Origin: Rheinheimera sp. 1928-s | Lineage (GTDB): Bacteria; Pseudomonadota; Gammaproteobacteria; Enterobacterales; Alteromonadaceae | Reading direction: 5' to 3' | Assembly: GCF_029269265.1 (NCBI RefSeq) | Contig: NZ_JARIXP010000003.1 | Location: forward strand, 368,972 to 432,686 | DNA length: 63,715 nt | Shown here: positions 33,966 to 63,715 of the stretch, piece after piece | Layout of the letters: every line of letters starts with the position of its first letter | How positions within the stretch are numbered: the stretch's first letter is position 1 | Translations under genes and position numbers: made by a program | Notes under the pieces: model-generated | Database searches by the model: none | What the model was told of the DNA's origin: nothing | What the model saw: only the letters and a program-made list of their open reading frames with translations

Positions 33966-34652
33966 ATGCTTTCACTGTTAAATCTCACTATTGCCATTAT
34001 TGATATTGCGTTGTTGCTTTATGTGATTCGCTCCTTGCCCGCCAGCCACGGCAACGGCAACGGGCAATGGCGCAGGTTTTTTCTTGCGGTACTGCTTTGT
34101 GGCATGACGTACGACAATCTGATTGTAGCCAGCGGTTATTGGTTTATTGAGCACCCCTGGTTTACCACGGCCAGCATGGGACGCTTCTATTTCCATGTGC
34201 TGAGTTTGCCGTTTTTGAGTTTGTTTACCTACTCCATTATTCGCGACTGCGGCCTGACGTTAGGACAAAGCAAGCCGTTTTTTCTGCTTTGCGTTTCAGC
34301 CACTTTGGCTGCTCTGGCTTTTGGTATCAGCCAGGAACTGGTTGGGCTGGAACTGGTGGAGAATAGCCAGTTTGGCATCCGCCGTATGTCAAATGCCCAT
34401 GGTTCGGCCCCCATAGCCACCATACTGACAAACCTGTTCACTATTCTGCTGGCTGCTTATGTATGGCGCAAAAGCGGCTTAAAAATCCTGTTTTTAGGCT
34501 CCTTGTTTATATTTATCGTTAATGGTGCAACTGCAGGGCAAAAATGGGGTTTTATTGCCGGCAATCTGGCTGAAATCGTTTTTGTGCTGAGCCTGATTGC
34601 CAGCCATAAACAAGTCAGTGTCAGGACGAGCCGACAGCAGGTTTCAGCATGA
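33966..34652 (+). CDS. Membrane protein of unknown function
   Basis: I do not recognise this 228-residue protein with about seven hydrophobic helices. The ATG at 33966 has AAGGA ten bases upstream; an upstream in-frame start at 33915 lacks it. Conserved-looking polar residues in membrane parts (YDNLIVASGYWF, GRFYFHVLSLP) hint at a sensor or channel rather than a transporter. Its stop overlaps the start of the hydrolase at 34649 by four bases, so the two are coupled. Confidence 0.7.
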   Translation: MLSLLNLTIAIIDIALLLYVIRSLPASHGNGNGQWRRFFLAVLLCGMTYDNLIVASGYWFIEHPWFTTASMGRFYFHVLSLPFLSLFTYSIIRDCGLTLGQSKPFFLLCVSATLAALAFGISQELVGLELVENSQFGIRRMSNAHGSAPIATILTNLFTILLAAYVWRKSGLKILFLGSLFIFIVNGATAGQKWGFIAGNLAEIVFVLSLIASHKQVSVRTSRQQVSA

Positions 34653-35605
34653 GTCGCTGGCGTCTGCTGTTGTGGCCTCTGAAGGCGCTGTTTCTGCTCA
34701 TAGCAGCTTATATCATTTGGGTGCTGCTGGCGTACCGGGATCTGCCGGTTGAAGAACTGGAACAACGTTATGGTGGCGCTCATCTGCAACAGGTGACGAT
34801 CGATGGTGTTCATCTGCGTTACAAAGTGGAGGGGCAAGGCCCGGTCCTGGTGCTGATCCACTCCCATTTTTACACCATGCGCCAATGGCAGCCCTGGGTG
34901 GATCAGTTAAGTAGCAGATTCACGTTAGTGCGCTTTGATCTGACCAGTCACGGCCTGACAGGACCTGATCCCAGTGGCGATTATTCCCGCGAGCGGGGTA
35001 GCCAGTTATTAACTGGCCTGCTGGATCATCTGCAAATCCAAAAAGCGAGTATTGTTGGTTCATCCACCGGTGCAGGCATTGCCTATACCTTTGCTGCCCG
35101 CTATCCAGAGCGCAGCCAAAGCCTGGTGTTAATCAACGCACCTGGCATGCCAAAAACTTCCAACAAATATATGGATAAACCCCTGCCTGCCTGGGGTGGT
35201 TTTCTGTTTTACCTGCTACCGGAAGGATTATTTGAAGGCTTCTTAAAGGCTCCCATTGTGGATGATCGTCTGGTGACCCCGGAGTTACTCAGCGAATTTT
35301 TCGATATGTACCGCCGGGAAGGCAATCGTATGGCGGAATACCAGCGAATGCGTGCCTATGAAAAAGGCGATGTATCACCGTTGCTGGCCAGCATCACTTC
35401 GCCGGTACTGTTGATGTGGGGAGAGCAAAATCCGCAGTTGCCGGTGGAACATGTTGAGTTATTTAAACAAAAACTGACCGCAAGCAAGGCGGTACAAAGC
35501 ATTGTTTATCCGGGCATAGGCCATGTGATCCCGCTGGAGAATCCACTGCAGTCTGCTCTGGATACTGCACACTTTGTCCAGTCACAGCTTGCTGAGCTGA
35601 AATAA
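34649..35605 (+). CDS. Membrane-anchored alpha/beta hydrolase
   Basis: A hydrolase of 318 residues with an N-terminal membrane helix (about 8-28) and an alpha/beta-hydrolase domain. The oxyanion region is LVLIHSHFY, the nucleophile is Ser139 in VGSSTGAG, and the His is in GIGHVIPLENP. The domain would sit in the periplasm. It may act on an ester; as it lies at the edge of the tetrapyrrole island it is one candidate for pigment de-esterification, but the family is too broad to be specific. Confidence 0.82.
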   Translation: MSRWRLLLWPLKALFLLIAAYIIWVLLAYRDLPVEELEQRYGGAHLQQVTIDGVHLRYKVEGQGPVLVLIHSHFYTMRQWQPWVDQLSSRFTLVRFDLTSHGLTGPDPSGDYSRERGSQLLTGLLDHLQIQKASIVGSSTGAGIAYTFAARYPERSQSLVLINAPGMPKTSNKYMDKPLPAWGGFLFYLLPEGLFEGFLKAPIVDDRLVTPELLSEFFDMYRREGNRMAEYQRMRAYEKGDVSPLLASITSPVLLMWGEQNPQLPVEHVELFKQKLTASKAVQSIVYPGIGHVIPLENPLQSALDTAHFVQSQLAELK

Positions 35606-35637
35606 AAAATTTAGATCATAAGAGAAAGAGTACACCT

Positions 35638-36651
35638 ATGAGCAGACCCCTGATAGCGCTGATACTAGGTATTTTTATGCTGGGTTGTAGTGAGCCAGAG
35701 CTGCCTGCAGCCAATCCTCTGAGTGTTGAACCCGGCCAATTAAGCCAGATTCCCTATCTGCAACAGGGGCAGTTGACTGTGGTGACAGAGCGCGATCTCA
35801 TTCTGCCTGCCAGTGAGGATTATCGTGAATTGACCTTAAGCGTGTTTTACCCGCAGCAGGGTGATCAGTATCCGATCATCTTTTTTTCGCACGGCAACTG
35901 GTCATCCAAAGACAAGTACGACAAGGTGATTCAGTATTGGGTTAGTCATGGTTATGTGGTGGTTGCCCCCAACCATCTGGATTGCTGCTCAAGAGTCCGT
36001 GGCATCCTGAACAGTCTGCGCTACGGCAATTTTGGCTTAATAGAACACAGGGTGAAAGACTTCAATTATTTAATCAACCAGTACAGTCTGGTGGAACAGC
36101 TACTGCCTGGGCTCAAAGACAAAGCGGATCTGAACCATATCGCGTTGGCCGGACATTCGTTTGGCGCCTTTACCGCACAGCAGTTTGGTGGTGCGGGCAG
36201 CTTCAATACCGATAACAAAAGCTATCATTTTTATCAGGACGGCAGAGTCAAAGCCATAGTGGCACTGTCACCGCCAGGCCCTATGTTCGATGAAATCACG
36301 ACGCAAAGCTGGCAGCAACTGTCCACGCCGACTTTTAATAGCACAGGCACCTGGGATATAGATAAATACTTTTTTACCGAATGGCAACTGCACCAAATGG
36401 CCTTTGATACCGCCTTAGCCGGCAACAACTATATGCTGGTGACTCAGGGTGCCGATCATTATCTGGGGAATCTGATTTGCCGGCCTGAACGTGATGTGGC
36501 ACCACAGCAGGACGCACTGATGCTGCTTAATGCCACCTCAACCGCCTTTCTGGCGGCTTATTTAAAGCAGGATCAGCAGGCTAAAGCGTTTTTGCAAAGT
36601 GGCGAGCTGCGTGACATAACTTCAGGGTTCTCTGTCCTGGAGTACCGCTAG
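35638..36651 (+). CDS. Lipoprotein alpha/beta hydrolase (PAF-acetylhydrolase/chlorophyllase-like)
   Basis: A hydrolase of 337 residues with a lipoprotein signal (FMLGC, acylated Cys17). The core shows IIFFSHGNWSS, a HGYVVVAPNH strand and the nucleophile Ser174 in AGHSFGAFTA, with a late GADHYLGN that may hold the His. This pattern occurs in the dienelactone hydrolase, PAF-acetylhydrolase and chlorophyllase branches. Classical chlorophyllase has GHSRGG, so the match is only to the superfamily. It is followed by a terminator, and the next gene is the rubredoxin reductase. Confidence 0.8.
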   Translation: MSRPLIALILGIFMLGCSEPELPAANPLSVEPGQLSQIPYLQQGQLTVVTERDLILPASEDYRELTLSVFYPQQGDQYPIIFFSHGNWSSKDKYDKVIQYWVSHGYVVVAPNHLDCCSRVRGILNSLRYGNFGLIEHRVKDFNYLINQYSLVEQLLPGLKDKADLNHIALAGHSFGAFTAQQFGGAGSFNTDNKSYHFYQDGRVKAIVALSPPGPMFDEITTQSWQQLSTPTFNSTGTWDIDKYFFTEWQLHQMAFDTALAGNNYMLVTQGADHYLGNLICRPERDVAPQQDALMLLNATSTAFLAAYLKQDQQAKAFLQSGELRDITSGFSVLEYR

Positions 36652-36662
36652 TCTCACCAGCA

Positions 36663-36712: not shown

Positions 36713-38359
36713 TTAAGGCATCAGCGCCGGGCATTGCCTTTCCAATACGGCTTTGGCACTGACCTGATCACCTGTCAGTGCAAAACCCAGCAATTGATTG
36801 CCTTGCCGATACAGGGCTTTAACCCCCAAATCAGAAGCCTGCTCTATCACCCACTCACCAGGCACCAGACTGCCATCCTGCTGCCGTGGCGGAGGATTTA
36901 CCACCACAGGGAATAAGGTGGTTTTAACCATCACAGGCATCACCGGATAATGCACAGGACTGCTATTGCCTGTCAGGGTTTTTGCCAAAGCCCGTACCTG
37001 CGCCAACAGCGGCAAGATATAAAACAGCAGATGGTTTTCTACCTGAGCACAATCGCCTATCGCATACACATCGCTGGCACTGGTCTGTAAGTATTTATCC
37101 GTAACAATGCCGCGATCCGTGACCAGATTGGCAGCCTGAGCCAACGCCATATTGGGGCGGACTCCTATGGCAGATAACACTAAATCCGCTTCAAGCTTTT
37201 GCTGGTTGCTGAGTTTGACCAGCACCCCGTCCTGATGATTGTCCACCTGCTGCACTACAGTACCAAAATGAAAACGAGCCCCGGCTAAGCGCAGCGCACG
37301 CTCGACGGATTCAGAGGCAACAGTGGGCAGTAAGCTGGCCAGCACTGTTGGCATCGGATCCACCACCTCCACCTGATAGCCAGCGTGCAGTAAATCATTG
37401 GCATACTCGGAGCCAATTAAACCAGCCCCAATAATCAGAATTTTTTGCTTTGGTTTCGCCAGTGTTCTGAATCTGGCGTAGTCGAGTAAATTATTCACAG
37501 AATGCACTTTATGCAGACCACTACCGGCCAAAGGTGGCTGAATGCAGGTGGCGCCAGTGGCAATTACCAGTTTGCTGTAGGGCTGGACGCTACCGTTGTT
37601 ACCCACCACAATCTGCTTCGTGTGTGTATCAATAGCTGTGATGCGGGTAAAAATGTGAATGTGCAGCTGGTACTGCTCAGCCATTTGTTCTGCCGTCTGC
37701 CCAACCAACTCGGCAGCAGATTTATTTTTAGCAAAGCCGGTAGATAACAAAGGTTTGGAATAAAAGTTGCCATCATCGCTGGTGTAGATCTGAATAGCGC
37801 AGGTCTGATCCAGTTTGCGGATTTCCTTCACCAGATTATAGGCCGCCAGGCCGCTGCCTATAATAACGATGGGAGCCTGCGCCGCAATGGACTCCGATTG
37901 AATTGCCACAACAGGCGCGACGTCAGGTAAGACTTTTGCGGCTGCAGTAGTAACTGCGATACGTTTGATTTCGCGCATATCAAAGTCGGTTTTACTAACA
38001 CCACATTCCGGACACAACCAGTCAGCAGGAATATCCTGCCAACGGGTGCCTGGCGCAATACCCTCGTCTGGCCAGCCTTTGGATTCATCATAAACCCAGC
38101 TACATACCTGGCATTCCCAAATACTGTACTCCAGCTCATCAGCCGCTGTGGCCGACTCTGTTTTTGTCGATCCTGACGCAGCGCCACTTAAGGCCACCAT
38201 TTCAAAATCAGCTTTGCTGACACCACATTCAGGGCAGGTCCACTCTTGCGGAATATCCTCCCAGCGGGTTCCGGCAGCTATACCTTCCTCCGGACAGCCT
38301 TTTGCTTCATCATAAATCCAGGCACACACCTGGCATTCCCAAATTCTGTATTCTGACAT
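36713..38359 (-). CDS. Double-rubredoxin/NAD(P)H:rubredoxin reductase fusion
   Basis: An electron-transfer protein of 548 residues. Two rubredoxin domains come first: cysteines 9, 12, 42 and 45, then 83, 86, 116 and 119, each with the CPECGVSK knuckle. A linker follows, then a flavoprotein domain (about 150-548) with FAD motif IIGSGLAAYN, NAD(P) motif IIGAGLIGSEYAND and YAIGDCAQ. The fusion passes electrons from NAD(P)H to its own rubredoxins. It is divergent from the Rieske oxygenase gene and shares its intergenic region, so it is the likely electron donor for that enzyme. No other reductase or ferredoxin gene is in the island. Confidence 0.88.
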   Translation of the reverse strand: MSEYRIWECQVCAWIYDEAKGCPEEGIAAGTRWEDIPQEWTCPECGVSKADFEMVALSGAASGSTKTESATAADELEYSIWECQVCSWVYDESKGWPDEGIAPGTRWQDIPADWLCPECGVSKTDFDMREIKRIAVTTAAAKVLPDVAPVVAIQSESIAAQAPIVIIGSGLAAYNLVKEIRKLDQTCAIQIYTSDDGNFYSKPLLSTGFAKNKSAAELVGQTAEQMAEQYQLHIHIFTRITAIDTHTKQIVVGNNGSVQPYSKLVIATGATCIQPPLAGSGLHKVHSVNNLLDYARFRTLAKPKQKILIIGAGLIGSEYANDLLHAGYQVEVVDPMPTVLASLLPTVASESVERALRLAGARFHFGTVVQQVDNHQDGVLVKLSNQQKLEADLVLSAIGVRPNMALAQAANLVTDRGIVTDKYLQTSASDVYAIGDCAQVENHLLFYILPLLAQVRALAKTLTGNSSPVHYPVMPVMVKTTLFPVVVNPPPRQQDGSLVPGEWVIEQASDLGVKALYRQGNQLLGFALTGDQVSAKAVLERQCPALMP

Positions 38360-38744
38360 CTACACCTCAGGCCAATTGTGCATTTATACCGGTCGTACTT
38401 GAAGCTGCAGCTTTGTTGACTGCGCAATCGAGCCCCTGCCTGGAACAGGCGATTCAGATTTAAGCACGTCTTCTGACTACCATAGTGCCAAAAACTTTGC
38501 TAAATTCAACCTAAATGACATATCATTATGTCATTAAATGCAATGTTATGTGGGTGACCACAGAGTGCGCAGACTAATGATTAGATTAAGTTGTTGATAT
38601 TAAAAAATATAATCATCTAATTCTGCGGAGAGTTTGCTAGCGGGCGACTCCAGGGCAACTAGGTAAAAATCCAGATGCTGCCGATCCAGTCATCGACATC
38701 AACTGTAATATAAAAGAAATTATAAACTTAAGGGAAAAGCGGCC
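38360..38744. other. Divergent regulatory region of rubredoxin reductase and Rieske oxygenase
   Basis: This 385-base non-coding region contains the palindrome at 38515-38534 and a long AT-rich section near 38570-38640. AAGGGAAAAG precedes the Rieske start at 38745. I see no RNA gene. Confidence 0.6.
38515..38534 (+). promoter_or_regulatory. Island operator candidate a (Rieske oxygenase)
   Basis: ATGACATATCATTATGTCAT has eight-base perfect arms. Preceded by TA, it contains the core TAAATGACATA, shared with three other promoters of the island in the same orientation to the downstream gene. It lies about 210 bases upstream of the Rieske gene. Confidence 0.55.
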
Positions 38745-40012: not shown

Positions 40013-40603
40013 TCACACCAAATGCTGCCAGATTTTGGCTTCAAATTTGGGCTCATGCACCTCCCCAACCAGACCTCTTGGGTCCAGCGGATGCCTCTCG
40101 TCACAACAAGGCGATAAGCGCACGCCCTTGGCGGTCAAAGTGCGTGTTGCCTGACCATTCCGGTACAACACAGTGTGCCGGGTACGTTGCCCTGGCGCTG
40201 TGACAATAATAAAATCCGGTTCTATGTACACATCGGTGGCCTGATTTAAAGTTCTGGCGCTAAAGGTCAGTATACCCGGCCCCCCCGACATTCCTACGTT
40301 TTCATAGCTACCAGGCCCCATCGCATCAAACACCAGCACACCATTTTTTAATTCGCCGGTAAAGGTCTTGGCTAAAGCCGGACGCCCACGAAAATGCACA
40401 TTGGTTATTTTGAAATAATGGCCGTCAAAGTCGATATACACCAGATTATCAAAAGGCGATTGCCCTGGGGTGCCACTGCCGGCCTGGGTATCATCCACTA
40501 AAGGAGTGCCATCCAAATGGAACAACTCGACACTGTCGTGCCAGGTGCCTCTGAGTTGCATTAAGGTGTGGCCAACGCTGCCCACCGGAAAAACCGTTGT
40601 CAT
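40013..40603 (-). CDS. Island protein of unknown function (beta-barrel-like)
   Basis: I do not recognise this 196-residue protein. It is rich in beta strands and begins with LRGTWHDSVELFHLDG, an opening like lipocalin-type or DUF3598-type barrels that bind pigments or lipids. It lacks a signal peptide, so it is cytosolic. It is divergent from an SDR gene, sharing a regulatory region, and follows the Rieske gene in a convergent arrangement. A binding or carrier role for a tetrapyrrole intermediate is possible but unproven. Confidence 0.65.
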   Translation of the reverse strand: MTTVFPVGSVGHTLMQLRGTWHDSVELFHLDGTPLVDDTQAGSGTPGQSPFDNLVYIDFDGHYFKITNVHFRGRPALAKTFTGELKNGVLVFDAMGPGSYENVGMSGGPGILTFSARTLNQATDVYIEPDFIIVTAPGQRTRHTVLYRNGQATRTLTAKGVRLSPCCDERHPLDPRGLVGEVHEPKFEAKIWQHLV

Positions 40604-40653
40604 AACTCATCCTGCATAGATTTACTCTATTCATTAGCTTACATTTGTATTAA

Positions 40654-40669
40654 AGTTATAACAATAACT
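40654..40669. promoter_or_regulatory. Island operator candidate g (divergent 40603/40704 genes)
   Basis: AGTTATAACAATAACT has six-base perfect arms. Its core GTTATAACAATAAC resembles the GATATAACAATATAAC read on the minus strand of the 62889-62904 site. It sits between two divergent island genes. Confidence 0.45.
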
Positions 40670-40703
40670 AACGCATTAATCTGACGTGAACTGGGAAAAA
40701 ACT

Positions 40704-41501
40704 ATGAAAACAGTGATCATCACCGGCAGTACCCGAGGCATAGGTAAAGGATTGGCAGAGAACTTTTTAAAACAAGGCTGTAAAGTGGTGATTACCGGCC
40801 GGTCGCAGGCTCAGGTGGATGAAGTTGTCACTCAGTTTGCCGGGCAATTCGGCATACAGCAGGTCTCAGGTCTTGCCTGTGATGTAAGCAGCTACGACCA
40901 GCTACAGGCGCTGTGGGACCATGCGGTTGCCACCTTCTCAACTGTAGATATCTGGATCAACAACGCGGGTATCAGCCTGCCGCGAAAACCGCTGGAACAA
41001 CAGGACCCCGCAGCCATCCACAGTATTATCGCCACCAATTTAGCCGGTGTGATGCTGGCGAGCAGCGTCGCGTTAAAAGGCATGAAAACACAAAACCACG
41101 GCCAGATCTGGAATATGGAAGGCTTTGGCAGTAATGATGCCACTCAACCCGGCATGACGATTTACGGCGCGACCAAAAGAGCTGTGACTTATTTAAACAA
41201 ATCACTGCAAAAAGAACTGAAAGGCACAGCAGTACAGGTGAACACCTTAAGTCCCGGCATTGTGGTGACTGATTTGTTAGTGGGTGATTACGACACCTCG
41301 TCAGCTGAATGGCTGAAGGTAAAAAAGATCTTCAATATCCTGGGTGATACTGTCGAAACTGTCACACCCTGGCTGGTGAAAGGCATACTGGCCACAGATA
41401 AATCTGGCACCAAAGTGGCATGGTTAACCAACGGCAAAGCCTTTGTGCGCTTTATGACCGCCGGCTTTAATAAAAGAGATTTGTTTAGTGATCTGGGTTA
41501 A
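40704..41501 (+). CDS. SDR oxidoreductase resembling NOL/NYC1 chlorophyll b reductase (A)
   Basis: An NAD(P)H-dependent SDR of 265 residues. The ATG at 40704 begins MKTVIITGSTRGIGKG; a GTG at 40686 is a weaker start. The catalytic set is Ser143, Tyr154 and Lys158 (YGATKR). The segments DIWINNAG, YGATKRAVTYLNKSLQKEL and VNTLSPGIVVTDLL closely follow plant NOL (chlorophyll b reductase), which reduces the C7 formyl group, as I recall it. It is paralogous to the 45492 gene. Role on a chlorophyll b-like substrate is inference. Confidence 0.8.
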   Translation: MKTVIITGSTRGIGKGLAENFLKQGCKVVITGRSQAQVDEVVTQFAGQFGIQQVSGLACDVSSYDQLQALWDHAVATFSTVDIWINNAGISLPRKPLEQQDPAAIHSIIATNLAGVMLASSVALKGMKTQNHGQIWNMEGFGSNDATQPGMTIYGATKRAVTYLNKSLQKELKGTAVQVNTLSPGIVVTDLLVGDYDTSSAEWLKVKKIFNILGDTVETVTPWLVKGILATDKSGTKVAWLTNGKAFVRFMTAGFNKRDLFSDLG

Positions 41502-41582: not shown

Positions 41583-42314
41583 TCAGGGTATAGCCTGTAA
41601 AAACGCTAAGCTTCGCGCAAACACCTGTTCAGCCTGTTCGGACGGGCTGAGCAGACCCTGTTGCTGTTCATCCTCTGCGGCAAAAGAGCCAAACTGCCAG
41701 TGGTTGGCGTTTTCAATCACCACATAGTCTGTGTTGACCGGCAATTTCGCCTTATTGTCGTTGATCTTTTGTGGCGTAGACTGCAAATCCTTCGAAGCTG
41801 AAATCGACTTTACAGCAATGCCCAACTGACTGATATCGCTGGCCGGGTAAGAAGCCAGCAGCAATAAGCCTTTGAAACGGCTTAGATCAGCGGTTTTGAC
41901 ATACTCAACTGCAGCCACGCCGCCTAACGAATGACCAGCAATGACCCACTGCTGAATAGCAGGATAGGCCGCGACCACGTCATCTGCCTTGTCGATCCCC
42001 AAAAACGCCGTGTTAAATGGCATAGGCACTATCACCGCCAGATAACCCTGCTCAGCAAAGCGCCGCATCAGAGGAGCAAAGGTCTCAGCACTGGTTTTAC
42101 CGCCTGGATAAAACAGTATGCCTTTGACAGGGGCGGTCTGCACCGGCTGAAAACTAATAAAATCCCCCTGGCTCACCCGAACCTGATCGGAAGAAATCAG
42201 CGCTGTTGCAGTCTCATCCTTATGGTACGCGAAAGGAATACTCATCCAGGCTAAGGTGCCGGTAACGACCACAACCAGCAGTGCAACAATTGCCAGCACG
42301 ATCTTTTTCAACAT
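41583..42314 (-). CDS. Membrane-anchored alpha/beta hydrolase
   Basis: A hydrolase of 243 residues with an N-terminal membrane helix (about 4-25) and a periplasmic alpha/beta-hydrolase domain. The nucleophile Ser129 is in AGHSLGG and a late His is in NANHWQFG. GILFYPGGKTS marks the oxyanion region. It is last in a six-gene island operon (47197 to 41583) with RCCR-like and NOL-like genes, which makes it a better-placed candidate for pigment ester cleavage than the two hydrolases further left. The substrate is unknown. Confidence 0.8.
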   Translation of the reverse strand: MLKKIVLAIVALLVVVVTGTLAWMSIPFAYHKDETATALISSDQVRVSQGDFISFQPVQTAPVKGILFYPGGKTSAETFAPLMRRFAEQGYLAVIVPMPFNTAFLGIDKADDVVAAYPAIQQWVIAGHSLGGVAAVEYVKTADLSRFKGLLLLASYPASDISQLGIAVKSISASKDLQSTPQKINDNKAKLPVNTDYVVIENANHWQFGSFAAEDEQQQGLLSPSEQAEQVFARSLAFLQAIP

Positions 42315-42397
42315 CAACGTCTCCTTGAGTACAAGCCACTGGGCAGGGATAGTTCAACAGCTACAATCCGCCTCTTTGCCCGGACTAAGCCCTTTGA

Positions 42398-47238: not shown

Positions 47239-47267
47239 AATGTATTAATAATATATCATTTAGTCAA
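47239..47267 (-). promoter_or_regulatory. Promoter with island operator candidate b
   Basis: TTGACT (47262-47267, minus strand), a 17-base spacer and TACATT (47239-47244) make a good sigma-70 promoter for the operon starting at 47197. The spacer begins with AAATGATATA, so the shared TAAATGAYATA core overlaps the -35 edge and spacer, as expected for repression. Confidence 0.65.
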
Positions 47268-48608: not shown

Positions 48609-48609
48609 C

Positions 48610-52703: not shown

Positions 52704-52789
52704 GACGAATGACCTGAACCTGTGCTGGCTGGAAAAAAACGGGTTGGCTATCAGTTGGAGGGAACCCGCTGCAGACCAACCCAAAGAAC

Positions 52790-54916: not shown

Positions 54917-55837
54917 TTACAGTCTGGACTTTTGCAGTTGTAAACTACGCCATTGATGCGCGCGGCCACCCGTTGTTGTGCCGGTCATTTCACCAGCCAG
55001 TTGACCAACTGCCATCAGTCGCGCCAAATCAATGCCCGTTTGAAAACCCATCTGCTGTAGCATCATCACCACATCTTCAGTGGCTATATTGCCGGTGGCA
55101 CCTGGTGCAAAAGGACAACCCCCCAGTCCGCCCACTGAGGCATCAAAACGACGGATGCCTGCCTCTAACGCTGCGTAGACATTGGCCAGCCCCAGAGCCC
55201 GGGTATCATGAAAATGGCAGGCCAGCGCCTGACCGGACTGTTGCGCGGCCAGCTCTTTCATCAGGCTATGCACTGCATTCGGCATTGCTGCACCAATGGT
55301 GTCGGCGATCACCAGTTCATGGGCGCCAAATTCGCTCAGTTGCGCGGCCATATTAAGTACAACTTTTGGATCAGTCTTGCCTTCAAACGGGCACTCCCAG
55401 GCCACCGCAATACACGCCATTACATCAATTGCATCAGATTTGGCTTGATGAATAATATCTCTCGCCTGCGCCAGTCCGTCCGCAATGCCCATGCGCACAT
55501 TTTTCTGGTTCATGGTTTCTGACGCGCAGACCACCAGCAACACAGCTTGTGACCCTGCCTCTCTGGCCAGTTCGTAGCCTCTCTGATTCGGCACCAGAGA
55601 TTGCAGATAAGCGCTTTTGTTGATACCAGCCTTATTCAGGCTGGTGACAATTTCTGCAGCACCAGCCATGGCCGGCACGGCTTTGGGCGACACAAAGCTG
55701 CCGACCTCAATAGAAGGCACACCAGCGTCCACCAGCGCATGGATCAGTTGTAAACGCTGCTGTGGCGTTAGAATTCTGGCCTGATTTTGCAGGCCATCCC
55801 TGGGGCCTACATCATTAATCCGCACAAAGTCGTTCAT
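54917..55837 (-). CDS. HMG-CoA-lyase-like TIM-barrel lyase
   Basis: A lyase of 306 residues. The start at 55837 (MNDFVRINDVGPRDGLQ) is preferred over 55870, which would overlap the preceding gene. Metal and catalytic motifs include DVGPRDGLQ, CHFHDTRALGLAN and the GGLGGCPFAPGATGN loop with its Cys. Family members cleave HMG-CoA or similar 3-hydroxyacyl-CoAs to acetyl-CoA plus a keto acid. Next to a CoA transferase it may cleave a CoA-activated branched hydroxy acid from this pathway. Confidence 0.88.
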   Translation of the reverse strand: MNDFVRINDVGPRDGLQNQARILTPQQRLQLIHALVDAGVPSIEVGSFVSPKAVPAMAGAAEIVTSLNKAGINKSAYLQSLVPNQRGYELAREAGSQAVLLVVCASETMNQKNVRMGIADGLAQARDIIHQAKSDAIDVMACIAVAWECPFEGKTDPKVVLNMAAQLSEFGAHELVIADTIGAAMPNAVHSLMKELAAQQSGQALACHFHDTRALGLANVYAALEAGIRRFDASVGGLGGCPFAPGATGNIATEDVVMMLQQMGFQTGIDLARLMAVGQLAGEMTGTTTGGRAHQWRSLQLQKSRL

Positions 55838-55859
55838 CTTTGATCCCATCCCAACAGGC

Positions 55860-57059
55860 TCAGGCCACAATGCCTTTGCGCTTTAATTCGTTGATTTCAT
55901 CCGCAGAAATCTTCAGCAACACCGACAGCACATCGTCTGTGTGCTGACCTATATATGGTGCTGCCGAGAAGCTTTCTTCATTGGTCCGTGACATTTTGAT
56001 TGGATTCCCTGGCCCCTGGGTTTTTTTGCCATCCGGATGATGCAAGTCGACCACCATATTGCGGTGCCTTACCTGCGAATCGTTTAACGCATCACTGAAC
56101 TTGTTGACAGGAGCACAGGGAATACGCGCCGCTTCAAGCAAACGGATCCAATGGGCATTGGTATTCGTCGCTAACAACGTGTTCAGCGTGGCATCAATAA
56201 AGGCTTTATCCGCAAAACGTCCTGGCTGGGTATCGTACTTTTCGTTGTCAAACTCCTTGATCTGCACCACCTTTTTCAGGTTCTGCCAGAAGTTATCCGT
56301 GATCACCGCCAGAATGATGTGACCATCCTTGGTTCTGTAACTGTTGTAAGGCACGTGGACAAAATGCGAATTGCCAATTGGATAAGGATTTTCACCAGAC
56401 AAAAAGTGCATGGTGGCCATATAGTTAAGCATCGAGATCTGGCAGTCGAGCATAGAGATATCAACATGCTGGCCTTTGCCGCTGCTGTTGCGCTCGACAA
56501 GAGCCCCCAAAATCCCCATCACACCAAACATACCCCCGCCCAAATCACCAACTGGAATGCCAGCGCGGATTGGCTCGTCGGCAGCATGGCCAGTAATCGA
56601 CATACCGCCGCCAAAAGCCTGAGCTACCTGGTCAAAAGCGGGGCGGTTTGCCGCAGGCCCCTGTGAACCAAAACCAGTAATGGTGCAGGTAATAATACGT
56701 TCGTTGTACCTGGCCAGAGTGTCGTAATCTATGCCAAGCCGCTCAGGCACTCCTGGACCAAAATTACTGATCACCACATCAGCTTCACGCACCAGCTTAT
56801 AAAATACCTGCTTACCTTCGTCGGTTTTCAGATCGATGGCCACAGAGCGTTTATTGCGGTTCAGCGTAATAAAATAAGCACCAAAGCCATCAAGGGAGTT
56901 TTTCGGATCCGTAGCCAGCAGCTTGCGCGTGCCTTCGCCCTGCAGCGGTTCAACTTTAATAGTATCTGCGCCCATATCCGACAAAATCATTGCGCCATAA
57001 GGCCCGGATAACATATGAGTCAGGTCAATAATTCTGATACCAGCTAAAGGTTTATTCAT
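55860..57059 (-). CDS. CaiB/BaiF-type (family III) CoA transferase
   Basis: A CoA transferase of 399 residues. The catalytic Asp172 lies in PVGDLGGGMFG, with the usual GIRIIDLTHMLSGPYG opening and VEPLQGEGTR. Family members move CoA between dicarboxylates such as succinate, itaconate, glutarate or mesaconate. It is first in the operon with HMGL-like, LeuCD-like and MFS genes and is preceded by operator candidate c. It probably activates an acid released by the lyases. Confidence 0.9.
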   Translation of the reverse strand: MNKPLAGIRIIDLTHMLSGPYGAMILSDMGADTIKVEPLQGEGTRKLLATDPKNSLDGFGAYFITLNRNKRSVAIDLKTDEGKQVFYKLVREADVVISNFGPGVPERLGIDYDTLARYNERIITCTITGFGSQGPAANRPAFDQVAQAFGGGMSITGHAADEPIRAGIPVGDLGGGMFGVMGILGALVERNSSGKGQHVDISMLDCQISMLNYMATMHFLSGENPYPIGNSHFVHVPYNSYRTKDGHIILAVITDNFWQNLKKVVQIKEFDNEKYDTQPGRFADKAFIDATLNTLLATNTNAHWIRLLEAARIPCAPVNKFSDALNDSQVRHRNMVVDLHHPDGKKTQGPGNPIKMSRTNEESFSAAPYIGQHTDDVLSVLLKISADEINELKRKGIVA

Positions 57060-57093: not shown

Positions 57094-57115
57094 AATGATA
57101 TAACTTTATATCATT
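57094..57115 (-). promoter_or_regulatory. Island operator candidate c (CoA transferase operon)
   Basis: AATGATATA and TATATCATT are perfect nine-base arms around ACTT. It lies 35 bases before the CoA transferase start. Read on the minus strand it is TTAAATGATATAAAG, the shared core. The inverted-repeat form GATATA-N4-TATATC fits a GntR/HutC dimer. Confidence 0.65.
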
Positions 57116-58275: not shown

Positions 58276-59052
58276 CTAAAACTCTTCCAGCAACCGCCCC
58301 ATACCTGTAATTTTGTCGTTAACACCACAGGCACGTAGCGCGTGCCAGACGGTGCAGGTATTGATAGGCAACATCGGCTTACCCAGAATATGTTCAAAAC
58401 TGGGAAAGATATCCACGGTTGATAAGTTGGTTCCGCACTGAATAATGCAATCCACATCATCAGCGTCCACCTCATAGATCGCATCCACCACCTGTTTTAT
58501 CGTGGTTTCTGCAATAGCTGTTGCCGAAGGACGGTTCAGCCCTTTCACCTTGTGGACTTCAAAGCCGATGTCGCTGAAAAAACGGATCACGTTTTCATCG
58601 CCGACCTGTGGATAAGGCGTAATCACCGATATTTTTTTACAGCCAAATTTCTCTAATGCGTCCTTGGTGGCAGCAGCCCCGGTGGTTAAACCCAGGTCAC
58701 CAATCTGGTCCTTAATATCACGTTCAAAAGCGATATTGCCCTCCAGCCCCCCCCAAAAGGTTTCAGCCGACATGCCCAACATAATGTGGTTTACTTTGGC
58801 ACTGAGTACATTACGAATTGAATAAGGGATCTCGCCACGCATAATTTCCAGAAAACGTTCAAACACCTGATTATCCGTCTCACCGGTTTTAGCAACTTCG
58901 TCGGCCCAGTTACGTAACTCGATAAAAAAGCGCGAAGGATGCCAGGTTACGCCATCCAGCCGTAATTTCTGCAGATCGTACTCCACACCTGTATTGGTAG
59001 AAGGAATAATGACGCCAATTTGAGCCCGGCGTGCTATTTGGTAGTTATCCAT
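58276..59052 (-). CDS. Asp/Glu racemase-superfamily protein, single-Cys (arylmalonate decarboxylase-like)
   Basis: A protein of 258 residues, paralogue of the 49873 protein. The opening VIIPSTNTGVEYD fits the maleate isomerase/AMDase group. The first cysteine loop is LGMSAETFW (Ser95), but the second is IIQCGTNLSTVD with Cys206, the arrangement of arylmalonate decarboxylase (one Cys only). It may decarboxylate a malonate-type acid or isomerise a maleate. It is preceded by operator candidate d and followed by the membrane protein gene. Confidence 0.83.
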   Translation of the reverse strand: MDNYQIARRAQIGVIIPSTNTGVEYDLQKLRLDGVTWHPSRFFIELRNWADEVAKTGETDNQVFERFLEIMRGEIPYSIRNVLSAKVNHIMLGMSAETFWGGLEGNIAFERDIKDQIGDLGLTTGAAATKDALEKFGCKKISVITPYPQVGDENVIRFFSDIGFEVHKVKGLNRPSATAIAETTIKQVVDAIYEVDADDVDCIIQCGTNLSTVDIFPSFEHILGKPMLPINTCTVWHALRACGVNDKITGMGRLLEEF

Positions 59053-59124
59053 TAAAACTCCTTAGTTCTCTGCGCAGCAAGGCTGCCTGATGCTGAAATC
59101 CAGATACATTGCCTCATTTGATTT

Positions 59125-59138
59125 AATGATATATCATT
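59125..59138 (-). promoter_or_regulatory. Island operator candidate d (58276 gene)
   Basis: AATGATATATCATT is a perfect 14-base palindrome 73 bases before the 59052 start. On the minus strand it is preceded by TTGACTTA, giving the shared core TTAAATGATATA and the same TTGACT block as promoter b. Confidence 0.65.
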
Positions 59139-60230: not shown

Positions 60231-60299
60231 ACACTCTGCGCTGGCAGTCGAAGGTGCCGCTATCAGAGCCTGTTGAAATGTAAAGTAAAAAGGAATGAT

Positions 60300-60755
60300 A
60301 TGTACGCAAAAACCATCACGGCTGCCAGCCTGTTTGTCGCCAGTTTAAGTGTGGCCGGCATGGCTTCAGCCCAAAACCTGACTGTGATCTTATCCGGACT
60401 CACATCCGAACAAGGGCAACTGGTCGTCCGGGTGTATAACAGCGAAAAACATTGGTTATCCGATAAAACAGACGAGATTTTCCAGCAACAGAGCTTTGCG
60501 CTGCAAGGCCAGGTCAAAGACGCAACCATACAGTTCAGCCTGGAATTACCCGCCGGCGACTATGCTTTATCGCTGTTTCAGGATAAAGACAACAATGGTG
60601 AGCTGAAAAGCAATTGGATTGGCATCCCCAAAGAGCCAGTTGCAACGTCCAATAACGCCAAAGGCAGCATGGGACCACCTGATTATAAAGACGCCGTATT
60701 CCAGATTGCTGACCAGCCCGCTGTGCAGCAACTGAATTTAGCCTCTATTGATTAA
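60300..60755 (+). CDS. Exported DUF2141 protein
   Basis: A protein of 151 residues. The ATG at 60300 follows an AAGGAA site. It has a signal peptide (about 1-24, ending SAQN) and a DUF2141 domain with YALSLFQDKDNNGEL and the SNNAKGSMGPPDYKDA block typical of the family. Function is unknown; it is periplasmic or outer-membrane associated. It follows the GntR gene by 69 bases. Confidence 0.85.
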   Translation: MYAKTITAASLFVASLSVAGMASAQNLTVILSGLTSEQGQLVVRVYNSEKHWLSDKTDEIFQQQSFALQGQVKDATIQFSLELPAGDYALSLFQDKDNNGELKSNWIGIPKEPVATSNNAKGSMGPPDYKDAVFQIADQPAVQQLNLASID

Positions 60756-60819: not shown

Positions 60820-62124
60820 CTATTGCTGATTTAACGGCACTATCTTGTTTTTCACCAGCAGACCCCAGACAAAGACTATCAAACCACAAAAGCCAACAAA
60901 CACAAAAGGACCGGACCTATCCCAATGATCATATAAATAACCACCCACTACACTGGACACCAAAATACCTATGGCACCACAAAGGTTAAATATACCAATC
61001 ACGGCACCACGTTTTTGGGCCGGTGTCTGCTGCGAAATCAGCACGCCTGAGGTAATAATGGCGCCAATTTCACTCAAACCTATAATCACCACCACCACAA
61101 TCATGCCGCCACCAAAAGGGTCTGAAATCAGGTAGGTACTGCAATAACCCACAAAAGTTATAAACAGAGCGATCAACAAAGCAGTCACACGGTTCAGTTT
61201 GTCAGTAAGCAGACCAAACAGCGGAGCACTCAGCAGTGCCACACTCTGGGCTATGGCCACAATAATACCGGCTTTTTTCAGTGCATCAGCAGCCGTCATT
61301 CCTGCTTCCTGTGTGCCATGGTGCGACAGCCACAAGGTCATAAAAGCTCCGACTATGGTCAGATTCGCGCGTGAAACAAAAGCTGCACCGTAGGCCAATG
61401 CAATTCCCGGTTCACGGGCCGCTTTGACGCCATCAACCATCAGCGACACTATACTTTGTTTATGCTCCTGATCCGATGACTGACGAGCCTTTAAACCACG
61501 CACAGACAACAAACCAACCACCACGGCAAAGCCCGCCACAATCATATACGTCTGGATCCCGGCTTCAATGGCTGACATCCCCTGCTGCTGAAAAACTGCA
61601 GGTAAACGCAGTAACACGAACAATGCGATCACTGCACCTATGCCGTTGCAGACGCCTTGCAAGCCTGCCGCTTTCCCTCTGTTGATGTCCTTGGCATAAT
61701 CGGCCAGCAGGGTCACGATCATGCAGGTGGCCGATGCTATACCCAGGCCATAAATCACCCGGTACAGGATCAACTCGTTCACGCTCTGGGCATGCGGGTA
61801 CAAATACATCGCCACAGCAACCAGCATAAATCCCAGTACTATAATCAAACGGCGGCCGAGTTTATCCGATAATGCCCCCCAGACTCCTACCGAGCCAATG
61901 ATGGCCATTTCGCCCCAGAAATTCAGCTTGCCGCTGACCACGCCCTGTTCAGTCGTCGGGAGCTGCATCATTTCGTTAAACAAAAACGGCTGAAAGGCAT
62001 TAATAAAAGTGCCGAACAAAATAGTAGCGACACAGGTTAAGTAAAAGGTGGACATGTGCCAGGCCGTTACACCTTCGTTGACACGAATGCCTAAGTATTT
62101 TTTTTCTGCCACTGAATCTGACAT
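60820..62124 (-). CDS. MFS transporter (island type 1)
   Basis: A transporter of 434 residues with about twelve helices and the signature GALSDKLGRRLIIVLG. It is a paralogue of the MFS at 43267 (shared YRVIYGLGIAS, LADYAKDINRGKAAGLQG and GAVIGIFNLCGAIGILV). It lies eight bases after the membrane protein at 62133 and is probably co-transcribed with it. Confidence 0.86.
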   Translation of the reverse strand: MSDSVAEKKYLGIRVNEGVTAWHMSTFYLTCVATILFGTFINAFQPFLFNEMMQLPTTEQGVVSGKLNFWGEMAIIGSVGVWGALSDKLGRRLIIVLGFMLVAVAMYLYPHAQSVNELILYRVIYGLGIASATCMIVTLLADYAKDINRGKAAGLQGVCNGIGAVIALFVLLRLPAVFQQQGMSAIEAGIQTYMIVAGFAVVVGLLSVRGLKARQSSDQEHKQSIVSLMVDGVKAAREPGIALAYGAAFVSRANLTIVGAFMTLWLSHHGTQEAGMTAADALKKAGIIVAIAQSVALLSAPLFGLLTDKLNRVTALLIALFITFVGYCSTYLISDPFGGGMIVVVVIIGLSEIGAIITSGVLISQQTPAQKRGAVIGIFNLCGAIGILVSSVVGGYLYDHWDRSGPFVFVGFCGLIVFVWGLLVKNKIVPLNQQ

Positions 62125-62132
62125 GCTGCTTC

Positions 62133-62843
62133 CTATAAATTTGTGCTAAGGCTATGATCCTGAGATTGGATCTGACGGTGTTTTTTATAAAGCATCAAGG
62201 CAGCAGCTAACAGCGCGCCCTGGGTAAAGGCATTGAGTATTTGCTCCACCCACTGCACAGCTTCGTCCTGATGCCCCAGACGGGCCAGACCGGCCAATAC
62301 AAAAACACCCACTAAATTCACCACGAACAATACCGCACTAGCGCGCAGGTTTAGCTGTAGGCAGTGTCTGACTGCATGCCAAATCAACACCACATTCGAC
62401 ACAGTCACCAGCACCAGCAAAGCCAGAAACCACTTGCGCTGTTCCGGAAATGCCACAGCAAGATAACCGGCAATGCTGGCAAAGAGCACAATAATCAGCA
62501 AAGGCCAGGCAAAGGTATAACCAGGTGCAGGACGCTGCTGGTAAGCTTTTCTGGCCGACCATAAATAATAAGTGAGCAAGGTAAAACCCGGTGCGAGGAA
62601 AATAAAAAAGCAGTTATTTAATACCGGATAATGCACCTCTGTAGCGGCAATCAGGAATTTCCAGAACACCTTACAAAATCCACCGGTAATAATCAGCAAA
62701 GCCGACGCCAGCACCTGCGTTCTGATCGATGGATGGATCAAGCCAATGGCGCGCGCCAGATATAGTAAACCAGCGCTGGATAACAACACCGGAATAAAAT
62801 CAAACAGGGCTAAGCCCATACTGTACTCAAACTCGTTCGTCAT
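62133..62843 (-). CDS. Seven-helix membrane protein of unknown function
   Basis: I do not recognise this 236-residue protein with about seven hydrophobic helices. The ATG at 62843 (MTNEFEYSMGLALFDFIPVL) is preferred to 62864. Its size and helix count recall small sensor or pigment-protein families, but no retinal Lys or other diagnostic residue is clear. It is the first gene of an operon with the MFS transporter and has a candidate operator upstream. Confidence 0.7.
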   Translation of the reverse strand: MTNEFEYSMGLALFDFIPVLLSSAGLLYLARAIGLIHPSIRTQVLASALLIITGGFCKVFWKFLIAATEVHYPVLNNCFFIFLAPGFTLLTYYLWSARKAYQQRPAPGYTFAWPLLIIVLFASIAGYLAVAFPEQRKWFLALLVLVTVSNVVLIWHAVRHCLQLNLRASAVLFVVNLVGVFVLAGLARLGHQDEAVQWVEQILNAFTQGALLAAALMLYKKHRQIQSQDHSLSTNL

Positions 62844-62888
62844 TTTTTCTCCCACCCTGAACATTTTTGCTGACTCAGCTTAACTCAT

Positions 62889-62904
62889 GTTATATTGTTA
62901 TATC
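62889..62904 (-). promoter_or_regulatory. Island operator candidate f (62843/63008 genes)
   Basis: The minus strand reads GATATAACAATATAAC, an inverted repeat of GATATA-type half-sites. Preceded by TTAATT it gives TTAATTGATATA, one mismatch from the shared core. It lies between divergent island genes. Confidence 0.5.
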
Positions 62905-63007
62905 AATTAATTAAAAGAACAGTTATCTTGTTTCTTGTCATGGCTGTTTAACTGCAAAAACTCAGGACAACAAATGCTATGGCTCAGATGATAAAAAAGG
63001 AAGAACC

Positions 63008-63715
63008 ATGATCCGTGTTGCCGCTGCCCAATTTGCTGTGACTAACAATGTACAGGACAATTTAGCCACCTGTTTACGCATGATAAAACAAGCCGCTTTA
63101 TGTTCACCTGATCTCATCGTGTTACCGGAGTTTGTTAATCACAATTCCTGGTATGACAATCAGGCACATTGTTATGAAGTGGCTATTGCTTTGGATGGCA
63201 ACTTTCTCAGCAGCATCAAAGCCGCCGCCGCAGAAGCCAACGCCTATGTGGTGTTGAACGCCACAGTGCAGCGCCCGGAGCTTGGCGAGCAGCACTGTAC
63301 CGGCACCAGCTTACTGATTTCCCCAAGCGGCGAGTTGCTGGCGCAAAATAATAAACAGGTGTTGGTGGGGCATGAAAACGATTTTCTCGACAGAGCCGAC
63401 ACTGAAGGGCCGGTGATCAACACCCCGATCGGCACGTTAGCCATGTATTCCTGTATGGATGGCGTGATCAACGAAACGCCTCGCGGGTTAGCACTGCGTG
63501 GTGCACAAATTCTCTGTAACAGTCTGAATTCCTTCGCGCTGGATGAAGGCGATCTGCATATTCCGGTGCGGGCAGCAGAAAACAAAGTGTTTGTTGTAGC
63601 GGCCAATAAGGTTGGCCCGCTGATCCCGGAACCTTTGCTGGTGCCCGTGTCTGAAGCCACCCGCATCCCGCTGCATTTTTTAAATGGTGCAGGTGACAGC
63701 CAGATTGTCGCGCCG
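63008..63715 (+). CDS. Carbon-nitrogen hydrolase (nitrilase superfamily), 3' end cut by window edge
   Basis: The first 236 codons of a nitrilase-fold amidase. The catalytic triad is Glu41 (VLPEF), Lys116 (NNKQVLVGHE) and Cys149 (YSCMDG). Family members hydrolyse amides, nitriles or carbamoyl groups in the cytosol. It starts at the ATG at 63008, divergent from the 62133 operon. In the proposed pathway it could open a maleimide or release ammonia from a maleamate; the family alone does not prove this. Confidence 0.88.
   Translation, partial: MIRVAAAQFAVTNNVQDNLATCLRMIKQAALCSPDLIVLPEFVNHNSWYDNQAHCYEVAIALDGNFLSSIKAAAAEANAYVVLNATVQRPELGEQHCTGTSLLISPSGELLAQNNKQVLVGHENDFLDRADTEGPVINTPIGTLAMYSCMDGVINETPRGLALRGAQILCNSLNSFALDEGDLHIPVRAAENKVFVVAANKVGPLIPEPLLVPVSEATRIPLHFLNGAGDSQIVAP

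What the first reader, a model, noticed from the sequence alone, without database searches (positions are those of the whole stretch)
34649..63715. Candidate bacterial chlorophyll/tetrapyrrole degradation island resembling the plant PAO-phyllobilin route
One contiguous block holds a PaO/CAO-like Rieske oxygenase with its own rubredoxin reductase, two NOL/NYC1-like SDRs, two RCCR-like proteins, three ester hydrolases, four MFS transporters and a set of organic-acid lyases under what looks like one regulator. In plants chlorophyll b reductase, chlorophyll/pheophytin esterase, PaO and RCCR act in sequence. Finding the same enzyme families together in a heterotroph, with lower-pathway genes, suggests complete use of a pigment as carbon and nitrogen source. 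The family assignments rest on recalled motifs; the substrate is inference.
Basis: partly seen in the sequence, partly recalled or inferred. Interest (0 to 1): 0.95.

Follow-up and report, generated by a model that had tools for sequence, protein, structure and literature searches.

The report
Candidate bacterial tetrapyrrole degradation regulon
A non-photosynthetic bacterium carries one co-regulated block of genes, also found in several other species, that looks built to take apart a chlorophyll-like pigment and feed its ring fragments into central metabolism.

Summary
The gene block is real and larger than reported. Two proteins are clear red-chlorophyll-catabolite-reductase (RCCR) homologues; a remote bilin-reductase-like third lies just past the window. 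A chlorophyllase-like lipoprotein, a Rieske oxygenase with rubredoxin reductase, four MFS transporters and lyases are present. The Rieske enzyme is VanA-type: 0 of 11 orthologues match the PaO domain. NOL/NYC1 identity of the SDRs could not be tested. The island runs from about 33.9 kb to about 26 kb past the window end. A palindrome, TGATATAnnnnTATATCA, sits in its promoters; a strict form occurs at 8 places in the 4.64-Mb genome, 7 in the island. Four markers (RCCR, Rieske, an Amdase, an orphan) occur at high identity in the same 9 of 295 family genomes; in one genome the modules lie on different contigs yet keep the operator. Past the window lie amidase-, PuuE- and isochorismatase-like hydrolases and flavin enzymes. 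Best reading: a regulon for mineralising a tetrapyrrole, most likely chlorophyll-derived, with pyrrole rings leaving as maleimides or alkylmaleates that end as pyruvate plus an acid. Tetrapyrrole chemistry rests on homology and co-inheritance; the exact substrate and lower route are inferred.

The parts
33874..33891 (.). operator site TGACATAACAATATAACT upstream of 33915
   Evidence: 18.5 bits
33915..34652 (+). hydrophobic protein (membrane protein by eye), weakly conserved near related loci
   Evidence: no Pfam; recurs in related loci at 32-64%
34649..35605 (+). alpha/beta hydrolase
   Evidence: Abhydrolase_1; 6 of 9 family genomes
35638..36651 (+). chlorophyllase-like hydrolase, lipoprotein by its LGCS lipobox (by eye), GHSFG motif
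   Evidence: PF07224 48.6 bits, cut-off 26; PAF-AH 40 bits, cut-off 20; motifs; 6 of 9 family genomes
36713..38359 (-). double rubredoxin - rubredoxin reductase fusion, likely electron donor (inference)
   Evidence: 9 of 9
38516..38533 (.). operator between rubredoxin reductase and Rieske genes
   Evidence: 21.2 bits
38745..39968 (+). Rieske oxygenase, VanA_C type
   Evidence: high identity in the same 9 of 295 genomes
40013..40603 (-). orphan conserved protein (196 aa)
   Evidence: no Pfam or PDB profile match; 9 of 9
40646..40663 (.). operator between the 40013 and 40686 genes
   Evidence: 16.2 bits; strict pattern
40686..41501 (+). SDR oxidoreductase
   Evidence: 9 of 9
41583..42317 (-). 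alpha/beta hydrolase (Abhydrolase_5)
   Evidence: 9 of 9
42398..43249 (-). RCCR1, red chlorophyll catabolite reductase homologue
   Evidence: PF06405 57.7 bits; 6 of 9
43267..44592 (-). MFS transporter
   Evidence: 8 of 9
44623..45453 (-). RCCR2, red chlorophyll catabolite reductase homologue
   Evidence: PF06405 52.6 bits; profile with RCCR1 and RCCR3 to AtRCCR 1.5e-21; 9 of 9
45492..46310 (-). SDR oxidoreductase
   Evidence: 8 of 9, G015 only 27%
46334..47197 (-). NAD-dependent epimerase/dehydratase-like
   Evidence: 9 of 9
47241..47258 (.). operator in divergent promoter
   Evidence: 19.2 bits
47318..47806 (+). glyoxalase-fold protein
   Evidence: PF13669; 9 of 9
47784..48608 (+). unknown, weakly conserved
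   Evidence: no Pfam; 28-47%
48538..49797 (+). MFS transporter
   Evidence: 2 of 9
49873..50652 (+). Amdase / maleate-isomerase superfamily protein A
   Evidence: PF17645 20.9 bits, below cut-off 25.9; 83-89% in the other 8 RCCR genomes, 37-41% in 7 others
50659..51540 (+). PrpB/dimethylmalate-lyase-like C-C lyase with KRCGH motif
   Evidence: 9 of 9
51543..52784 (-). MFS transporter
   Evidence: 5 of 9
52790..53431 (-). LeuD-type hydratase small subunit
   Evidence: 6 of 9
53431..54873 (-). LeuC-type hydratase large subunit
   Evidence: 7 of 9
54917..55870 (-). HMG-CoA-lyase-like
   Evidence: 324.5 bits, cut-off 246; 9 of 9
55860..57059 (-). class III CoA-transferase
   Evidence: best model succinate-glutarate CoA-transferase 303 bits, below its cut-off 750; 9 of 9
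57096..57113 (.). operator TGATATAACTTTATATCA
   Evidence: 24.0 bits
57208..58224 (-). hydrophobic protein (membrane protein by eye)
   Evidence: no Pfam; 7 of 9
58276..59052 (-). Amdase / maleate-isomerase superfamily protein B
   Evidence: PF17645 54.4 bits; PDB AMDase and maleate isomerase; 9 of 9
59119..59136 (.). operator in divergent promoter of 58276 and GntR
   Evidence: 23.3 bits
59323..59340 (.). second operator in the same promoter
   Evidence: 18.0 bits
59457..60230 (+). GntR/UTRA regulator, likely the master regulator (inference)
   Evidence: 9 of 9, at 69-90% in the other 8
60273..60755 (+). DUF2141 protein
   Evidence: 9 of 9
60820..62124 (-). MFS transporter
   Evidence: 9 of 9
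62133..62864 (-). hydrophobic protein (membrane protein by eye)
   Evidence: no Pfam; 9 of 9, at 38-70% in the other 8
62888..62905 (.). operator TGTTATATTGTTATATCA
   Evidence: 23.6 bits
63008..63715 (+). start of two-domain carbon-nitrogen hydrolase (amidase); runs past the window end
   Evidence: L065:3980-5662, CN_hydrolase 151.6 bits; start placed

Best explanation
A single GntR-type regulon for uptake and mineralisation of a tetrapyrrole pigment, most likely a chlorophyll derivative. Inferred flow: a TonB receptor (beyond the window) and MFS carriers import the pigment; hydrolases strip ester groups; the Rieske oxygenase, fed by the rubredoxin reductase, attacks the macrocycle; RCCR1 (or RCCR3 in other genomes), RCCR2 and the bilin-reductase-like RCCR4 reduce the ring-opened tetrapyrrole; flavin monooxygenases and aldehyde dehydrogenases cut it to one-ring pieces; PuuE-like cyclic amidases, a nitrilase-type amidase and isochorismatase-type half-amidases turn maleimides or lactams into dialkylmaleates and ammonia; Amdase/maleate-isomerase proteins and LeuCD rearrange and hydrate them; a PrpB-like lyase would give pyruvate plus an acid (glutarate from a propionate-bearing ring, butyrate from an ethyl-bearing ring), and CoA-transferase plus HMGL handle the rest. 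Shown here: gene families, conservation, shared operator, common phylogenetic profile. Inferred: every substrate, every reaction and their order.
For: RCCR homology to plant RCCR over most of the chain (3.8e-9 for RCCR2 alone; 1.5e-21 for a 26-sequence profile, with HY2, PEBB and PebA next). RCCR4 matches a bilin reductase weakly (HY2 0.0019). PF06405, the Rieske enzyme, Amdase A and orphan hyp329 each occur at high identity in the same 9 of 295 family genomes. 28 of 52 query proteins recur at 38% identity or more in all 9, own genome included. In G015 the RCCR2 and Rieske/RCCR3 modules are on different contigs yet both carry the operator. Strict operator pattern: 8 places genome-wide, 7 in the island. 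Chlorophyllase-like protein. No heme oxygenase PF01126 (3 of 14 controls rang; other haem-oxygenase families not searched) and no reaction centre PF00124 in the genome. Lower enzymes match N-carbamoylsarcosine-type amidohydrolases, AMDase/maleate isomerase, PuuE, methylisocitrate and dimethylmalate lyases.
Against: Rieske protein is VanA-type, not PaO. The AtRCCR Glu154 column is non-acidic in RCCR1-3 (residue number recalled). No Staygreen found (no positive control). In the stretches fetched, the chlorophyllase-like gene was seen in 6 of 9 family genomes, LeuD in 6, LeuC in 7, PuuE-like in 6, the TonB receptor at 51% or more in 5. The chlorophyllase-like protein also passes the PAF-AH cut-off and lacks the recalled GHSRGG motif. 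LeuCD and HMGL pass the cut-offs of ordinary isopropylmalate dehydratase and HMG-CoA lyase models. No paper found in the searches made shows such a bacterial pathway.
Confidence: 0.55

Rival explanations
1. The regulon degrades a bilin (biliverdin, bilirubin or an algal phycobilin) rather than a chlorophyll; the RCCR-type enzymes act as bilin reductases and the Rieske enzyme demethylates or hydroxylates a side chain.
For: RCCR and bilin reductases share one superfamily; RCCR4 is nearer to HY2/PebA than to RCCR; no PaO domain; the Glu154 column is not acidic in RCCR1-3.
Against: RCCR1 scores 57.7 bits with RCC_reductase against 22.8 with Fe_bilin_red, and RCCR2 has no Fe_bilin_red match at E<=0.001; no PF01126 heme oxygenase in the genome; chlorophyllase-like hydrolase in 6 of 9.
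Confidence: 0.25
2. The substrate is another nitrogen-containing or aromatic natural product, and the RCCR fold has been recruited to a non-tetrapyrrole reduction.
For: The lower enzymes resemble those of N-heterocycle catabolism; the first Rieske relatives in the PDB are methylxanthine demethylases and Sxt enzymes (that Sxt enzymes act on saxitoxin-type compounds is recalled); active-site acid changed in RCCR1-3.
Against: Three different RCCR/FDBR-superfamily proteins in each of the 9 family genomes (RCCR2, RCCR4 and either RCCR1 or RCCR3); every member of that superfamily with known function that I recall acts on tetrapyrroles.
Confidence: 0.17
3. The reductases make a chromophore for a photoreceptor, as PcyA-type enzymes do.
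For: FDBR superfamily membership; heterotrophs with active pre-PcyA enzymes are known (PMC10151467, passages read).
Against: No PF01126 heme oxygenase in the genome; partners are hydrolases and lyases under one operator.
Confidence: 0.02
4. The neighbourhood is a chance gathering of unrelated genes.
For: Gene order differs among genomes.
Against: Same 9 of 295 genomes for four markers and one operator.
Confidence: 0.01

Closest known systems
Plant PAO/phyllobilin pathway (chlorophyllase or pheophytinase, PaO, RCCR)
   Same: RCCR-family reductases, a chlorophyllase-like hydrolase and a Rieske oxygenase; RCCR and Rieske share one 9-of-295 profile
   Different: Rieske is VanA_C type without PaO domain; three RCCR/FDBR-superfamily proteins per family genome; no Staygreen found (no positive control); lower-pathway genes are attached, whereas in plants phyllobilins are stored (recalled)
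Ferredoxin-dependent bilin reductases and heterotroph pre-PcyA clusters (PMC10151467)
   Same: same superfamily; found in non-photosynthetic bacteria
   Different: no PF01126 heme oxygenase in the genome, none of the V4R or globin partners among the families assigned; the paper uses RCCR and related sequences, with Ca. Schekmanbacteria ones among them, as outgroup (passages)
Aerobic nicotinate route (maleamate amidohydrolase, maleate isomerase) and cyclic-imide route (imidase, half-amidase), both recalled
   Same: isochorismatase-type amidase, Amdase/maleate-isomerase proteins, FAD monooxygenase, alpha/beta hydrolase, PuuE-like hydrolase
   Different: attached to RCCR/Rieske upper genes and to PrpB-, LeuCD-, CaiB- and HMGL-type enzymes, which suggests alkylated maleates (inference)
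2-methylcitrate / dimethylmalate lyases (PrpB, DML)
   Same: methylisocitrate lyase 2.3e-51 and dimethylmalate lyase 1.8e-45, KRCGH kept
   Different: scores below the prpB equivalog cut-off (266.2 against 354.4 bits)

Membership tests
RCC reductase (PF06405) | profile score over curated cut-off | tested here: met
   RCCR1 57.7 and RCCR2 52.6 bits, cut-off 24.9; RCCR4 19.2, below it
RCC reductase (PF06405) | acidic residue at AtRCCR Glu154 (number recalled) | tested here: not met
   V118 in RCCR2, Ala in RCCR1 and RCCR3; Asp in RCCR4, placed there by the PHxxxD motif and not by a joint alignment
RCC reductase (PF06405) | acidic residue at AtRCCR Asp291 (number recalled) | tested here: met
   Asp of the (R/L)DPxN motif, invariant in 26 of 26, aligns there
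RCC reductase (PF06405) | reduces red chlorophyll catabolite | not testable with these tools
   needs enzyme assay
Pheophorbide a oxygenase / CAO | Rieske domain plus PaO C-terminal domain PF08417 | tested here: not met
   Rieske present; 0 of 11 orthologues match PF08417 at E<=10, 11 of 11 match VanA_C
NOL/NYC1 chlorophyll b reductase | family-specific SDR profile | not testable with these tools
   only generic SDR models among those listed
Chlorophyllase (PF07224) | profile score over curated cut-off | tested here: met
   48.6 bits, cut-off 26, but only residues 65-180 align, and PAF-AH passes too with 40 against 20; no NCBIfam hit at E<=1e-5
Chlorophyllase (PF07224) | GHSRGG lipase motif (recalled) | tested here: not met
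   GHSFGA at residue 172
Methylisocitrate lyase PrpB | NCBIfam equivalog cut-off | tested here: not met
   266.2 bits, cut-off 354.4
Isopropylmalate dehydratase LeuCD | NCBIfam model cut-offs | tested here: met
   leuC 714.8 against 560.25, leuD 237 against 116.25
Allantoinase PuuE | NCBIfam equivalog_domain cut-off | tested here: not met
   103.1 and 98.5 bits, cut-off 424.6
Ferredoxin-dependent bilin reductase (PF05996) | profile score over curated cut-off 31 | tested here: not met
   RCCR1 22.8, RCCR4 20.4

The most novel reading that the evidence does not exclude
This is a complete bacterial pathway for eating chlorophyll, the first to be described: a Rieske enzyme of a non-PaO lineage opens the ring, three RCCR/bilin-reductase-superfamily enzymes reduce it step by step, and each pyrrole leaves as a maleimide that is hydrolysed, hydrated and split to pyruvate plus glutarate or butyrate, giving the cell carbon and nitrogen from the whole pigment.
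Probability: 0.35. Interest if true: 0.95.

Novelty: new variant of a known kind. Interest (0 to 1): 0.85.

Why it matters
Very large amounts of chlorophyll disappear each year (recalled), yet the searches made (open-licence papers only) listed no bacterial gene set that mineralises it; a bacterial Mg-dechelatase homologue is known (PMC8531759, listing and start of abstract only). This regulon offers named carriers (for example Paraglaciecola hydrolytica S66), a regulator, an operator and 28 genes shared by all 9 family genomes found, so the question becomes directly testable by growth, deletion and enzyme assays. It would also give the RCCR/bilin-reductase superfamily a catabolic role in heterotrophs and a source of pyrrole-degrading enzymes.

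Tried and rejected
PaO/CAO identity of the Rieske enzyme: rejected as family membership. Own-haem route: no heme oxygenase PF01126 (other haem-oxygenase families not searched). Phototroph recycling its own pigment: no PF00124. Staygreen dechelatase: none found, but no control genome rang, so absence is not shown. Exact short inverted repeats in promoters gave nothing recurrent, at most 2 of 29 stretches; allowing mismatches gave the operator. Orphans: hyp40013 has no Pfam, PHROGs or PDB-profile match; hyp329 has no Pfam match and one weak PHROGs match at E 0.05; no PDB search was made for hyp329; the two are not convincingly related (hhalign probability 7%, E 0.005). The one strict operator match outside the island (L090:8329) lies inside an ORF that looks like a GGDEF protein by eye and seems chance. 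Literature: listings and starts of abstracts only for (one search found 0 papers); passages read in PMC10151467 and PMC6755814.

Full report
OBSERVATION. Pfam confirms two RCC_reductase proteins (42398-43249, 57.7 bits; 44623-45453, 52.6 bits; cut-off 24.9), a Rieske oxygenase, SDRs and MFS, further MFS, PrpB-, LeuCD-, HMGL- and CaiB-type proteins, a double-rubredoxin reductase fusion, a chlorophyllase-like protein and a GntR-UTRA regulator. Amdase B is over its Pfam cut-off, Amdase A below it. The Rieske protein is the weak point of the plant analogy: it carries VanA_C, and 0 of 11 orthologues match the PaO domain at E<=10; its first PDB relatives are NdmA, SxtDIOX, SxtT and NdmB. The SDRs hit generic models in the lists shown, so NOL/NYC1 identity is untested.

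THE UNIT IS LARGER. Relatives showed extra conserved genes, and the genome beyond the window continues with a two-domain carbon-nitrogen hydrolase (starting at 63008 in the window), RCCR4, an acyl-CoA-dehydrogenase-like flavoprotein, two aldehyde dehydrogenases (by similarity among loci and by eye), an alpha/beta hydrolase, an isochorismatase-type amidohydrolase, an FAD monooxygenase, a hydroxyacid dehydrogenase, two PuuE-like proteins, a second isochorismatase, the orphan hyp329, a flavin reductase, a hydrophobic protein, a GST-like protein (by eye), a TonB receptor, a LysR regulator, a cupin and a second LeuCD/HMGL/CaiB set (36-48% to the first). The ORF listed at 63244-63666 is antisense to the amidase.

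ONE REGULON. A palindrome TGATATAnnnnTATATCA recurs in the intergenic DNA. The recurrence score of the best palindromic 18-mer was 169 (13 other intergenic stretches) against 73-86 (6-7 stretches) in 5 base-composition shuffles. With a matrix made from these sites, the window has 9 hits of at least 12 bits: 8 in the island part and 1, the weakest, in bases 1-33800; 5 Markov shuffles of the window gave 0-1 each. The matrix was trained on the island, so that enrichment is partly circular. Less circular are the relatives, whose islands carry the same motif, and the strict pattern TGWNHTANNNNTATAWCA, itself drawn up from these sites, searched in all 4,641,281 bases: 8 distinct places, 7 in the island, 0 for the reversed control. 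The eighth (L090:8329) lies within an ORF. Of six stretches run as controls, two had a hit of at least 15 bits: L090 (the eighth site) and L087, whose hit lies about 33 kb past G087's GntR gene. That the GntR protein binds this motif is inference from its own promoter carrying two copies and its presence in 9 of 9 family genomes.

PHYLOGENETIC PROFILE. In 295 genomes of the same family (the same handles in each call, as far as the lists show), PF06405 is in 9, own genome included (0 of 14 control genomes). The Rieske enzyme is at 76-90% in the 8 others of these 9 and otherwise only as a 31% relative in one genome, G231 (E<=1e-30). Amdase A is at 83-89% in the same 8, while 7 further genomes have only 37-41% relatives (E<=1e-30). 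hyp329 is in the same 9 and no other (E<=1e-5). In the wider samples PF06405 is in 4 of 369 class genomes and 1 of 398 phylum genomes, own genome included in both. Of 52 query proteins, 28 recur at 38% or more in all 9 family genomes in the stretches fetched; a gap in that table is not proof of absence. In G015 RCCR2 lies on contig C1 near 949 kb of 1.45 Mb and the Rieske/RCCR3 module on contig C223, and both carry the operator, so linkage alone does not explain the shared profile. RCCR1 (6 of 9) and RCCR3 (3 of 9) exclude each other.

NAMED CARRIERS. One scan of genome contigs with an RCCR2/RCCR3 alignment gave 19 loci, among them Paraglaciecola hydrolytica, Thalassomonas, Thalassotalea mangrovi, an Alkalimonas MAG, Halioglobus, Parahaliea maris, Litorivivens lipolytica, Paraferrimonas, Aestuariicella, Pseudohalioglobus and HTCC2148. 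In HTCC2148 PrpB, the hydrolase 34649, the chlorophyllase-like gene, RCCR3, RCCR4, hyp40013 and the Rieske gene lie within one 20.8-kb locus. L044, L045 and L047 hold RCCR2 with SDR45492, a 33-35% relative of hydrolase 41583 and, in two of the three, the epimerase-like gene, but no Rieske gene in the flanks fetched.

WHAT THE REDUCTASES ARE. RCCR2 alone finds Arabidopsis RCCR at 3.8e-9. A profile of 26 RCCR1-3 sequences finds it at 1.5e-21, then phytochromobilin synthase 4.4e-6, PEBB 5.1e-5 and PebA 3.8e-4. RCCR4 is a remote member, below both Pfam cut-offs, nearer to bilin reductases (HY2 0.0019, RCCR 0.46). In the alignment the column of AtRCCR Glu154 (numbering recalled, anchored on the F218V mutant chain, also recalled) is Val in RCCR2 and Ala in RCCR1 and RCCR3; RCCR4 has Asp at the matching place of its PHxxxD motif, which is not a joint alignment. 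The Asp291 column falls on the Asp of (R/L)DPxN, invariant in 26 of 26. So RCCR1-3 are RCCR-family proteins whose regiochemistry may differ from the plant enzyme.

LOWER ROUTE. The isochorismatase-type protein matches N-carbamoylsarcosine amidohydrolase best and also 3ot4/3uao (3uao as maleamate amidohydrolase is recalled). Amdase B matches arylmalonate decarboxylase and maleate isomerase. The PuuE-like protein matches allantoinase at 1.8e-20 but scores 103.1 bits against a cut-off of 424.6. The PrpB-like lyase matches methylisocitrate lyase at 2.3e-51 and dimethylmalate lyase at 1.8e-45. The FAD monooxygenase matches PnpA and HspB. LeuCD pass the isopropylmalate dehydratase cut-offs; isopropylmalate dehydratase works through an alkylmaleate (established knowledge). 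Oxidised pyrroles give dialkylmaleimides such as hematinic acid and ethyl-methyl-maleimide (established chemistry, recalled). If these are opened and deaminated, hydration and PrpB-type cleavage would give pyruvate plus glutarate or butyrate. This chain is inference, and LeuCD and PuuE-like genes were not seen in every genome.

VERDICT. Tetrapyrrole catabolism under one regulator is well supported by homology and co-inheritance; chlorophyll as source is more likely than a bilin, not shown. No described bacterial equivalent was found in the library searched, which lacks most subscription journals. RCCR-related bacterial sequences as such are known (PMC10151467, passages).

Noticed in passing
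L020:17558-18373, L022:16550-17368, L033:10087-10902: A third RCCR type (RCCR3) sits between the Rieske and rubredoxin-reductase genes in the three family genomes that lack RCCR1; RCCR1 and RCCR3 never occurred together in the 9 family genomes.
   Followed up: partly
L059:12383-13585 and L061:9663-10535 (G660): A class-level relative has two RCCR2-like proteins (53% and 46%) without the rest of the island in the stretches fetched; role there unknown.
   Followed up: no
window 40013-40603 and L065:17637-18626: Two orphan protein families with no Pfam match; hyp329 is confined to RCCR genomes in the family sample and hyp40013 recurs near the Rieske or RCCR3 gene; possible pigment-binding proteins, a guess.
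   Followed up: partly
L066:5957-10246: A second LeuCD/HMGL/CaiB set with an operator at L066:8995; among the loci seen as a full set only in Aestuariicella (L054); may serve a second ring type.
   Followed up: no
L090:8329: The only strict operator match outside the island, inside a GGDEF-like ORF (by eye); probably chance.
   Followed up: yes
window 25730-31899: KdpD sensor kinase and an E1-E2 ATPase (KdpB by context) to the left of the island; no operator hit there.
   Followed up: no
L044:6740-8551, L045:11417-13228, L047:13096-15021: In three Halioglobus-type or gammaproteobacterial MAG loci a 603-641 aa protein with 33-35% identity to hydrolase 41583 over part of its length sits near RCCR2.
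   Followed up: no
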